A DNA stretch of 64,000 nucleotides from the NCBI GenBank assembly GCA_003142255.1, contig PLLO01000012.1, positions 248,001 through 312,000 of the forward strand, given 5' to 3'. The translations under genes and the position numbers were made by a program. Positions 45,507-46,786 of the stretch are shown here, in pieces. How positions within the stretch are numbered: the stretch's first letter is position 1; each line of letters begins with the position of its first letter. The stretch comes from Bacteroidales bacterium (GTDB lineage Bacteria; Bacteroidota; Bacteroidia; Bacteroidales; VadinHA17). The notes beneath the pieces are model-generated. The model made no database searches. It was not told where the DNA came from and was given only the letters and a program-made list of their open reading frames with translations.

Positions 45507-45730
45507 ATTATTAGATTTAAGGGAAAGCAATATTTAGGTCCACAATTTCATAAAATATAAAGTAAAAGACAAATTATGGAAGGATTTTTAATTAACAATT
45601 TATGAATTTTCGGAGTATTTAGAAAAGGTGAATGAGTTCCTTTAAATATAGGCGCCCATCAGAAAGAGGTTTATCGCTTGCTCTTGAATTGGCAGTTACT
45701 AAATGAATAGAAGGGAGTATTTGAATAAGG

Positions 45731-45761
45731 AGATTCCTCGCTGGCGCTCGGAATGACAGGG
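45731..45761 (-). repeat. HSERSEES-type repeat half-unit
   Basis: AGATTCCTCGCTGGCGCTCG followed by GAATGACAGGG. It is identical to the left end of the 146-bp units at 45796 and 46370. Confidence 0.9.
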
Positions 45762-45795
45762 TTACAAATAAATATGAGTGAGTAATTGAAGAGGG

Positions 45796-45941
45796 AGATT
45801 CCTCGCTGGCGCTCGGAATGACAGGGTAATTTTGGGAGTTTAGAAGGGGAAGGCGGTTTGCATGTGCAAACCGCCTTCCCCTTCACCCTATTTAACAAAC
45901 GAATTGTCATTCCGAATGAAGCGTAGCGAAATGAGGAATCT
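45796..45941. repeat. 146-bp repeat unit, copy 1, with terminal inverted repeats and central hairpin
   Basis: Ends are inverted repeats of AGATTCCTC ... TCGGAATGAC. The middle has a perfect 20-bp stem, GAAGGGGAAGGCGGTTTGCA, loop TG, then its complement. Copy 2 has exactly the same length. No coding region is supported in 45531-46074; the rest of that stretch is AT-rich spacer. Confidence 0.95.
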
Positions 45942-46074
45942 CCATGATGTATTACATGGTCTAACCTAATTAAGTGTAAATTCTGAAAAAAGTAAATGAA
46001 AAGTGAATATAAAATTTTCTTAACTTAGTATTCTTGAGGATTTATTTCGCTGCATCTATTTCACATTCATCTCA

Positions 46075-46395
46075 ATGAAAATACATTTATATTATGTTTA
46101 TATTTTGACAAACACCTCCCATTCAGTACTTTATACAGGGATTACAAATGATTTAGAGAGAAGGTGTTTTGAGCATAAACAGAAAAAAGTAAATGGATTT
46201 ACAAAAAAATATAACGTAGATAAATTAATCTACTTTGAGAAATATGATTTTGTCGATTTGGCAATTGCAAGGGAGAAACAGATAAAAGGATATTCCAGGG
46301 CAAAAAAGGTAGCGCTTATAGATCAATTCAATCGAGAATGGATAGATTTATATTTTAATGGAAGGATAGAGATTCCTCGCTGGCGCTCGGAATGA
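46075..46395 (+). CDS. GIY-YIG nuclease-domain protein (UPF0213/YhbQ-like size)
   Basis: The 106-residue protein has the GIY-YIG core: YYVYILTNTSHSVLYTGITN (residues 6-25), LERRCFEHKQKKVNGFTKKY with the catalytic Arg and His, and AIAREKQIKGYSRAKKVALI with the metal-binding Glu (about 67). Such single-domain proteins are mobile-element- or repair-associated nucleases of mostly unknown role. The last seven codons and the TGA stop are supplied by the left end of 146-bp repeat copy 2, so gene and repeat are physically fused. No other gene is present between the two repeats. Codon use is AT-rich compared with the flanks, consistent with transfer. Confidence 0.92.
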   Translation: MKIHLYYVYILTNTSHSVLYTGITNDLERRCFEHKQKKVNGFTKKYNVDKLIYFEKYDFVDLAIAREKQIKGYSRAKKVALIDQFNREWIDLYFNGRIEIPRWRSE

Positions 46396-46515
46396 CAGGG
46401 TAATTTTGGGAGTTTAGAAGTGGAAGGCGGTTTGCACTTGCAAACCGCCTTCCACTTCACCCTATTTAACAAACGAATTGTTATTCCGAATGAAGCGCAG
46501 CGAAATGAGGAATCT
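46370..46515. repeat. 146-bp repeat unit, copy 2, with compensated hairpin change
   Basis: Same length and orientation as copy 1. Its central hairpin GAAGTGGAAGGCGGTTTGCA / loop CT / complement differs from copy 1 at G to T in the left arm and C to A in the right arm, which keeps every base paired. Other differences are a few scattered substitutions in the loop and right terminal repeat. Confidence 0.95.
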
Positions 46516-46554
46516 TACATTAAGTATAACTGCATACCCCAGTAAAGATGGACT

Positions 46555-46590
46555 ATCATTCCGAATGGAGCGCAGCGGAACGAGGAATTT
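46555..46590 (+). repeat. HSERSEES-type repeat half-unit (inverted relative to those left of the nuclease)
   Basis: ATCATTCCGAATGGAGCGCA followed by GCGGAACGAGGAATTT; same family as the right end of the 146-bp units. Confidence 0.85.
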
Positions 46591-46629
46591 CCCCTGGTAA
46601 GTTCCTGCATCCCCTATAATAGATGAATT

Positions 46630-46665
46630 GTCATTCCGAGTGAAGCGTAGCGAAATGAGGAATCT
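46630..46665 (+). repeat. HSERSEES-type repeat half-unit
   Basis: GTCATTCCGAGTGAAGCGTA followed by GCGAAATGAGGAATCT, almost identical to the right end of 146-bp copy 1. Confidence 0.9.
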
Positions 46666-46695
46666 TCTTTTAAAAACGACTAGGCTCATAAAGTT

Positions 46696-46730
46696 GATGG
46701 ATCCGCCACCAGCGGAGGAATGAGGAATCT
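46696..46730 (+). repeat. Degenerate repeat half-unit with TCCGCC/GCGGA core
   Basis: Ends in GGAATGAGGAATCT like the other half-units, but its centre is TCCGCCACCAGCGGA, the same palindromic core seen at the tRNA-Ser(CGA) locus. Nothing else is supported between here and the next promoter. Confidence 0.55.
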
Positions 46731-46754
46731 TTTCTGGTCACAGCCCGGGTATGA

Positions 46755-46786
46755 TTTGCCAGTCAAAATCAAAAATCATATCTTCG
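46755..46786 (+). promoter_or_regulatory. Bacteroidota-type promoter for the M3 peptidase gene
   Basis: TTTG at 46755-46758, a 20-base spacer and TATCTTCG at 46779-46786, giving a predicted start near 46793 and a leader of under 40 bases. Confidence 0.6.

What the first reader, a model, noticed from the sequence alone, without database searches (positions are those of the whole stretch)
45731..46730. GIY-YIG nuclease gene embedded between two 146-bp repeats: a possible self-contained mobile unit
The nuclease frame (46075-46395) lies between two direct copies of one 146-bp element, 428 bases apart, and its last seven codons and stop are inside copy 2. Each copy has terminal inverted repeats and a central hairpin, like a non-autonomous element; the nuclease is the only enzyme present. 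The arrangement parallels REP sequences with their REP-associated enzyme, but with a GIY-YIG nuclease as candidate enzyme. That the nuclease moves or maintains the repeats is inference.
Basis: partly seen in the sequence, partly recalled or inferred. Interest (0 to 1): 0.75.

Follow-up and report, generated by a model that had tools for sequence, protein, structure and literature searches.

The report
Nuclease genes paired with mobile DNA hairpins
A small DNA-cutting enzyme gene sits between copies of a hairpin-shaped DNA repeat, and its relatives in many bacterial groups sit beside matching hairpin repeats too, which suggests that it is the missing partner enzyme of a widespread class of bacterial repeats for which none was known.

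Summary
A 106-aa GIY-YIG nuclease lies between two 147-nt copies of a dispersed REPIN-like element (two inverted REPs around a perfect hairpin); its stop codon lies inside copy 2. The link is not coincidence. Of 80 relatives from many phyla, 76 have a palindrome of the form TCAT-NNN...N'N'N'-ATC within 400 nt. Without any motif, 5' and 3' flanks match in 49 of 79 nuclease loci but 12 of 549 control ORFs. The inner triplet tracks nuclease phylogeny, and genomes are richest in the repeat type that flanks their nuclease. Related species lack the insertion at the two own-genome sites of this subfamily and at one repeat-only site. In tag and stem start the repeats match the published CGTC-tagged REP superfamily (with Neisseria dRS3), reported to lack a dedicated enzyme. 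Best reading: this GIY-YIG clade is the cognate enzyme of CGTC-type REPs; it recognises and cuts the REP hairpin and so spreads REPIN units and itself. Cutting and movement by this enzyme are inferred, not shown. Main rival: a homing-like nuclease that only uses REPs as landing sites. A second GIY-YIG clade sits beside tRNA genes.

The parts
46075..46395 (+). GIY-YIG nuclease, 106 aa; Y9, Y20, R30, H34, E67 invariant in an alignment of 29 sequences (this one included)
   Evidence: PF01541 57.5 bits; alignment A1; AF2 pLDDT 89.9; dN far below dS
45795..45941 (.). REPIN-like copy 1 (REP - hairpin - REP)
   Evidence: fold z -10.3
46369..46515 (.). REPIN-like copy 2, contains the nuclease stop codon
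45796..45823 (-). REP, inner triplet TCC type, left end of copy 1
   Evidence: sequence; motif scan
45905..45941 (+). REP, right end of copy 1 (TGTCATTCCGA...GAGGAATCT)
45843..45884 (.). perfect central hairpin of copy 1 (2 x 20 nt)
46370..46397 (-). REP, left end of copy 2; its GGAATGA gives the stop codon
46417..46458 (.). perfect central hairpin of copy 2
46479..46515 (+). REP, right end of copy 2 (one change near the tag: TGTTAT)
45731..45758 (-). extra REP upstream of copy 1
46554..46590 (+). extra, diverged REP
46629..46665 (+). extra REP
46700..46730 (+). truncated REP (its GTCATTCC end is missing)
45604..46755 (.). DNA absent at the syntenic site of two related species (2 nt in G088, 29 nt in G018 in its place)

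Best explanation
A clade of stand-alone, about 100-aa GIY-YIG nucleases is the dedicated partner of CGTC-type REPs ((T/C)GTC tag, hairpin with AT-NNN...N'N'N'-AT stem, short tail). Each subfamily recognises its own REP type through the stem triplet and tag, cuts the REP (probably as an extruded or single-stranded hairpin, as the GIY-YIG enzyme Slx1 cuts branched DNA), and the ends are then joined elsewhere with host repair. REP pairs (REPINs) thus spread in trans and the REP-nuclease-REP unit spreads as the autonomous form. SHOWN: the association across phyla, type matching, REP> gene <REP orientation bias, sites lacking the insertion in relatives at two nuclease loci and one REP-only locus, purifying selection on the nuclease. 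INFERRED: hairpin cutting, that this enzyme moves the repeats, the joining step.
For: Motif-free flank test: 49 of 79 loci (1 of the 80 had too short a flank) against 12 of 549 control ORFs (MWU 7e-28). TCAT-NNN...N'N'N'-ATC rule: 76 of 80 loci, 48 on both sides, density 17.8x the far DNA, reversed-tail control 4 matches against 256. Loci with full flanks: 64 of 66 on any side and 40 of 66 on both, against 109 and 9 of 465 ORFs, or 25 and 2 of 110 small ORFs. Repeat type on the nuclease tree: 23 changes against 45.9 in shuffles, as low in 0 of 200. Double dissociation in 45 genomes that I chose from those of the 80 loci (29 of 40 TGC, all 12 TCT, 4 others): TGC-REPs median 29 in TGC-nuclease genomes and 0 in TCT ones; TCT-REPs 0 and 18.5 (p 3.5e-5, 2.2e-5). 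Within the genus, A-REP number is higher with the A nuclease (11 against 32 genomes, p 8e-5), not with B-only nucleases (p 0.49). Sites without the insertion in relatives. Orientation +/- in 31 of 47 loci with REPs on both sides, of 88 examined. Catalytic residues invariant (their role recalled); dN far below dS. Foldseek against PDB: UPF0213 1zg2 is the only hit at E below 0.001; Slx1 chains follow at E 0.03-0.2.
Against: Genomes with many REPs but no detected nuclease exist: 13 of 32 genus genomes without the A nuclease hold A-REPs, e.g. G088 with 21; all are draft assemblies. G094 has an A nuclease and no exact-pattern A-REP. Over all 98 genomes, B-REPs are also somewhat more numerous with A-only nucleases (p 0.033). 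2 of 12 TCT-nuclease genomes hold more TGC- than TCT-REPs; 12 of 29 TGC genomes hold some TCT-REPs. CCT and CCC types are not clustered on the tree. 30 of 79 loci do not reach the flank-match cut. No clear target-site duplication, and the extra DNA carries about 25-130 nt of non-repeat sequence at its edges. The sites without insertion are in other species, so loss there is possible. A sister clade sits at tRNA genes, not REPs, which fits a 'landing site' reading as well. Relatedness was not corrected for. No biochemistry.
Confidence: 0.55

Rival explanations
1. Homing-like selfish nuclease: the enzyme cuts its cognate REP so that its own gene, carried between REPs, is copied into other REP sites by recombination. 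REPs are landing sites and homology arms; something else makes REPs.
For: Explains type matching and direct REPIN copies on both sides. The sister clade at tRNA genes with partial tRNA copies looks like target use. GIY-YIG is a known homing fold (recalled).
Against: The two own-genome nuclease sites show no REP motif at the syntenic spacer of relatives, so a resident REP was not seen as target there. REP copy number follows the cognate nuclease. A REP-only insertion occurs too.
Confidence: 0.3
2. Passive hitch-hiking: REP clusters are tolerated intergenic hot spots and a gene landing there persists; the nuclease does not act on REPs.
For: REPs cluster in intergenic DNA, and repeats favour recombination (general knowledge).
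Against: Control ORFs in the same contigs rarely have REPs on both sides (9 of 465); nuclease subfamily and REP type are matched; the REP> gene <REP orientation is biased.
Confidence: 0.08
3. REPs are moved by a RAYT/Y1 transposase, and the GIY-YIG gene is incidental.
For: Two Y1_Tnp genes occur in the genome.
Against: Neither has these repeat types within the 1.5-kb flanks held. Di Nocera et al. report that no tyrosine transposase gene of CGTC-positive species was flanked by CGTC repeats (PMC3733652, passages).
Confidence: 0.03
4. The nuclease is a host-beneficial structure-selective enzyme that resolves or restrains REP hairpins (stability factor).
For: Weak fold similarity to Slx1; purifying selection.
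Against: Patchy presence (the A subfamily in 11 of 98 family genomes), several broken copies (stops in rows), absence from the syntenic sites of relatives.
Confidence: 0.04

Closest known systems
CGTC-tagged REP superfamily (Di Nocera et al. 2013, PMC3733652)
   Same: Terminal CGTC/TGTC/CCTC tag, AT at the start of the stem, high copy, inverted dimers; Neisseria dRS3 is a named member, and dRS3 copies surround a GIY-YIG gene here
   Different: The passages read report no dedicated enzyme; window-type REPs have an interrupted stem and a CTC/CTT tail rather than CCA. S. meliloti and A. lipoferum are listed there, but I did not check that their listed repeats are the ones seen here (figures not held)
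REP / RAYT (TnpAREP) REPtrons and REPINs (PMC3116915 passages, PMC8266576 abstract)
   Same: Single small enzyme gene flanked by its cognate REPs, subfamily-matched REP types, inverted REP pairs as the dispersed unit
   Different: Enzyme is a GIY-YIG nuclease, not an HUH/Y1 transposase; tag is GTC, not GTAG
Free-standing and intron GIY-YIG homing endonucleases (I-TevI type, recalled)
   Same: GIY-YIG catalytic domain, selfish-looking patchy spread
   Different: No separate DNA-binding domain (106 aa), no intron, sits among repeats in intergenic DNA
UPF0213 small GIY-YIG proteins (1zg2, 1ywl) and Slx1
   Same: Same fold; Slx1 cuts branched DNA (entry titles)
   Different: Slx1 matches are weak (E 0.03 or more); UPF0213 function not known from these calls

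Membership tests
CGTC-tagged REP superfamily | unpaired CGTC tag (or TGTC, CCTC) at one end | tested here: met
   Window REPs begin TGTCAT. Words enriched near nucleases without any motif given include TGTCATTCC and CTTGTCATT. Tag counts TGTC 189, CGTC 63, TCTC 7, CCTC 6, but that script only admitted these four
CGTC-tagged REP superfamily | AT in the first two stem positions | tested here: met
   Present in the window copies; it was part of the search rule, so the counts there are not independent evidence
CGTC-tagged REP superfamily | 8-9 bp stem with 4-5 nt loop and CCA tail | tested here: not met
   Window REPs have an interrupted stem and end in CTC/CTT. The Shinella and Azospirillum copies end in CCA; the Neisseria copies in CTA, CCA or CCG
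CGTC-tagged REP superfamily | high copy number, mostly as inverted dimers | tested here: inconclusive
   43 copies in the own genome and an inverted pair in each 147-nt copy; the share of dimers genome-wide was not counted
REP/RAYT REPtron | HUH/Y1 tyrosine transposase | tested here: not met
   Enzyme is PF01541; the two Y1_Tnp genes of the genome have no such repeats near them
REP/RAYT REPtron | GTAG tag | tested here: not met
   Tag is GTC
REP/RAYT REPtron | enzyme gene flanked by cognate REPs, enzyme and REP types matched | tested here: met
REP/RAYT REPtron | enzyme cuts its cognate single-stranded REP | not testable with these tools
   needs purified protein
GIY-YIG homing endonuclease | GIY-YIG domain with catalytic residues | tested here: met
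   role of the residues recalled from I-TevI/UvrC
GIY-YIG homing endonuclease | separate DNA-binding region; intron or gene target | tested here: not met
   106 aa, only the elements of one small domain in the AF2 model; TIGR01453 17.5 bits against cut-off 56.05; intergenic
Classical IS/MITE | transposase plus target-site duplication | tested here: not met
   No transposase gene between the repeats; no clear duplication at the two sites compared

The most novel reading that the evidence does not exclude
Stand-alone GIY-YIG nucleases are the long-missing, bacteria-wide enzymes that generate and spread CGTC-type REPs (including Neisseria dRS3/NIME arrays and rhizobial palindromes): a REP-mobilising system unrelated to RAYTs, with enzyme and hairpin co-evolving through a stem triplet. 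A sister clade does the same with tRNA-derived hairpins.
Probability: 0.5. Interest if true: 0.95.

Novelty: new variant of a known kind. Interest (0 to 1): 0.88.

Why it matters
CGTC-type REPs were found in five phyla in 2013 and reported to lack a dedicated transposase (PMC3733652, passages); here repeats of that form stand beside a GIY-YIG gene in more phyla still. That gives a specific, testable enzyme family, with a possible recognition code (the stem triplet) that can be swapped in vitro. It gives a candidate cause for repeat-linked rearrangements such as those tied to NIMEs in Neisseria (PMC9778887, passages), and it would be a second, independent invention of the RAYT/REP relationship, made with a nuclease instead of a transposase.

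Tried and rejected
Chance or contig background as the cause: rejected by control ORFs and the reversed-tail control. RAYT as the enzyme in this genome: rejected. Phage spread: 1 of 50,697 phage records has a weak match; 32 of 72,556 plasmid records match. Target-site duplication: looked for at the two nuclease sites, none convincing. Literature: ten searches. No listing or passage that I saw links GIY-YIG genes to REPs, but several lists were capped (30 of 380 papers, 15 of 157, 10 of 13, 25 of 92), most listed papers were not opened (among them the 10), and preprints are not held; so priority is not settled. 'CGTC' together with GIY-YIG was not searched as such; CGTC REP terms return only PMC3733652, and its row shows 0 occurrences of GIY-YIG. 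Alignment A1 was too diverse for the contig scan; A2 was used instead, and it favours the clade nearest the window, so the 80 loci are the best 80 of at least 569 and not a random draw; at least three of them (L046, L051, L052) are nucleases already seen in the family search. Start codons are the farthest in-frame ATG, so some 5' flanks were taken too far out, which works against a match. A- and B-nuclease classes were assigned by eye. Rows dropped before the tree: 4 broken or partial (L018, L022, L026, L044), 4 skipped by the script (L080, L082, L108, L124), 3 duplicates. My note said that the tRNA clade has 0 TCAT...ATC matches; one search shows one match each in L202 and L205, with triplets that look like chance.

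Full report
OBSERVATION. The window lies in a 3.73-Mb genome of 19 contigs. Its genus includes G018, whose nuclease protein is the same as that of a named Bacteroidales MAG contig, JALONT010000076.1. Four further REPs lie beside the unit.

OWN GENOME. The repeat is dispersed (43 exact-end copies). Seven GIY-YIG matches occur, five of them small genes. One, on contig C2, has the same layout as the window: repeat, nuclease, repeat. The two nucleases are 75% identical, with dN 0.137 and dS about 2.6, near saturation, so they are not a recent duplication. A third nuclease (C5) has a different REP type (TTGC/GCAA) on its 3' side, a fourth (C1) lies between a third kind of inverted repeat (82% complementary arms), and the fifth (C11, at a contig end) looks like the tRNA-linked clade described below.

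FAMILY. In 98 genomes of the same family, 63 have a match to the nuclease at E below 0.001; this includes the distant, tRNA-linked clade. Of 34 loci scanned with one-mismatch motifs, 32 (not L011, L045) have a motif match outside the gene within 700 nt, and the nuclease subtype goes with the repeat type by eye; single matches at that threshold include chance hits. Exact patterns for repeat A (26 of 98 genomes) and B (32 of 98) show fixed ends around a variable palindrome, with 0 matches of the reversed control. Within the genus, A-repeat number is higher in the 11 genomes with an A nuclease than in the 32 without (p 8e-5), and B-repeat number likewise with the B nuclease (p 0.003). Crossed pairs show nothing within the genus (p 0.49 both ways); over all 98 genomes they give p 0.096 (A repeats, B-only nuclease) and 0.033 (B repeats, A-only nuclease). 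Also against this, 13 of the 32 hold some A repeats, and one A-nuclease genome holds none.

ACROSS BACTERIA. A contig scan gave 80 loci, the best of at least 569, from Bacteroidota, cyanobacteria, Chloroflexi, Clostridia, several proteobacterial classes, Brocadia, Omnitrophota and others. Without using any motif, the 350-nt 5' and 3' flanks match each other (score 16 or more) in 49 of 79 loci and in 12 of 549 control ORFs of the same contigs. Enriched flank words gave a common form, GTCAT-NNN ... N'N'N'-ATC, in which the triplet differs between repeat families but stays complementary. The rule TCAT-NNN...N'N'N'-ATC finds repeats within 400 nt of 76 of 80 nucleases, 48 on both sides, at 17.8 times the density of the rest (256 in 61,957 bp against 187 in 805,232 bp). 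Of 66 loci with full flanks, 64 have one on any side and 40 on both, against 109 and 9 of 465 control ORFs. Inner segments between the fixed ends hold longer stems than simple shuffles (3.17 against 2.51, 279 distinct segments). REPs point as REP> gene <REP in 31 of 47 two-sided loci (88 loci examined).

TYPE MATCHING. On a 111-row nuclease tree (99 columns, many forks unresolved) the repeat type needs 23 changes against 45.9 for shuffled labels, as low in 0 of 200. TGC, TCC and TCT are each clustered (0 of 500 shuffles as low); CCT and CCC are not. In 45 genomes that I chose from those of the 80 loci, TGC-REPs outnumber TCT-REPs in 29 of 29 TGC-nuclease genomes, and TCT outnumber TGC in 10 of 12 TCT-nuclease genomes. 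One TCT genome, G127, also holds a TGC nuclease (L070 and L086 are from the same MAG). Copies near the nuclease itself are included; without them 27 of 29 TGC genomes still hold TGC-REPs. Relatedness was not corrected for.

SITES WITHOUT THE INSERTION. At the window site, G088 and G018 keep both neighbours, but 45604-46755 is absent (2 and 29 nt in its place), with no REP motif at the spacer; G088 does have four motif matches about 2.3 kb away. At the C2 site, G083, G108 and G055 lack the 942-nt block, and no motif match is found in their fetched stretches. A repeat-only site (C3) likewise has no motif match in G083 and G108. No convincing target-site duplication was seen. These are other species; loss there cannot be ruled out, though for all three sites it would need losses in several genomes or their common ancestors.

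NAMED EXAMPLES. A relative with an open frame sits in a dRS3 array in a Neisseria gonorrhoeae record, and others lie beside palindromes of the same form in S. meliloti, Shinella, Rhizobium, Azospirillum (between sufB and sufC), Planktothrix and Spirosoma; the Novosphingobium case has a variant palindrome that the rule misses. The dRS3 formula ATTCCC(N8)GGGAAT is from PMC3898611 and PMC9778887 (passages).

KNOWN WORK. Di Nocera et al. (PMC3733652, abstract and passages) define CGTC-tagged REPs with the same tag variants and AT stem start, include Neisseria dRS3, and state that they apparently lack a dedicated transposase. RAYT/REP systems (PMC3116915 passages; PMC8266576 abstract) have the same layout with an unrelated enzyme. 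Nothing that I saw in ten searches links GIY-YIG to such repeats; lists were capped and preprints are not held.

MECHANISM. The catalytic residues are invariant, the model is confident (pLDDT 89.9), and the only strong structural match is UPF0213 1zg2, with Slx1, a branched-DNA nuclease, following at weak E-values. I commit to cognate REP hairpin cutting that spreads REP-bounded DNA, at 0.55; homing-like use of REPs as targets is at 0.3. Steps not shown: cutting, dependence of REP movement on this enzyme, and the joining step.

SISTER CLADE. I took 20 of the lower-scoring hits (29-41% identical). Two have a single match to the TCAT...ATC rule (L202, L205), with triplets that look like chance. 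16 of 20 have an ARAGORN tRNA gene within about 300 nt (15 upstream, 1 downstream). 14 of 18 testable have matching flanks, by eye often a partial tRNA copy whose anticodon arm is replaced by another palindrome. This suggests that hairpin-bearing targets are a general theme of small GIY-YIG genes, and it is also the best argument for the homing-like rival.

Noticed in passing
L201-L220 (and, by its look, L011 of the own genome, contig C11): A second clade of small GIY-YIG genes sits directly beside tRNA genes (16 of 20 by ARAGORN) and is often followed by a degenerate copy of the same tRNA with its anticodon arm replaced by a palindrome (by eye).
   Followed up: partly
L010 1750-1803 and 2961-3014: The last codons of the C5 nuclease plus the start of its REP recur 1.2 kb away, as if the gene's 3' end had been copied with the repeat.
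   Followed up: no
L043, L045, L009: A further nuclease clade is flanked by other repeats (TTCGACTTCGCTCA type; GGTGGTTGAGGCTC type) that do not follow the TCAT...ATC rule.
   Followed up: no
46 nuclease loci of the family: 17 of 46 nuclease hits lie within 500 nt of a contig end against 3.5 expected (46 of the 50 loci L016-L045 and L201-L220, without L016, L026, L040, L044), so draft assemblies seem to break at these units and may undercount them.
   Followed up: partly
L195, L199, L198: Nuclease genes lie between an MmeI-type restriction gene and DISARM drmA on a Planktothrix plasmid, between sufB and sufC in Azospirillum, and between two glycoside hydrolase genes in Spirosoma.
   Followed up: no
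L024, 5' flank of the nuclease: Five degenerate REP motifs about 96 nt apart upstream of the nuclease, as in a tandem array.
   Followed up: no
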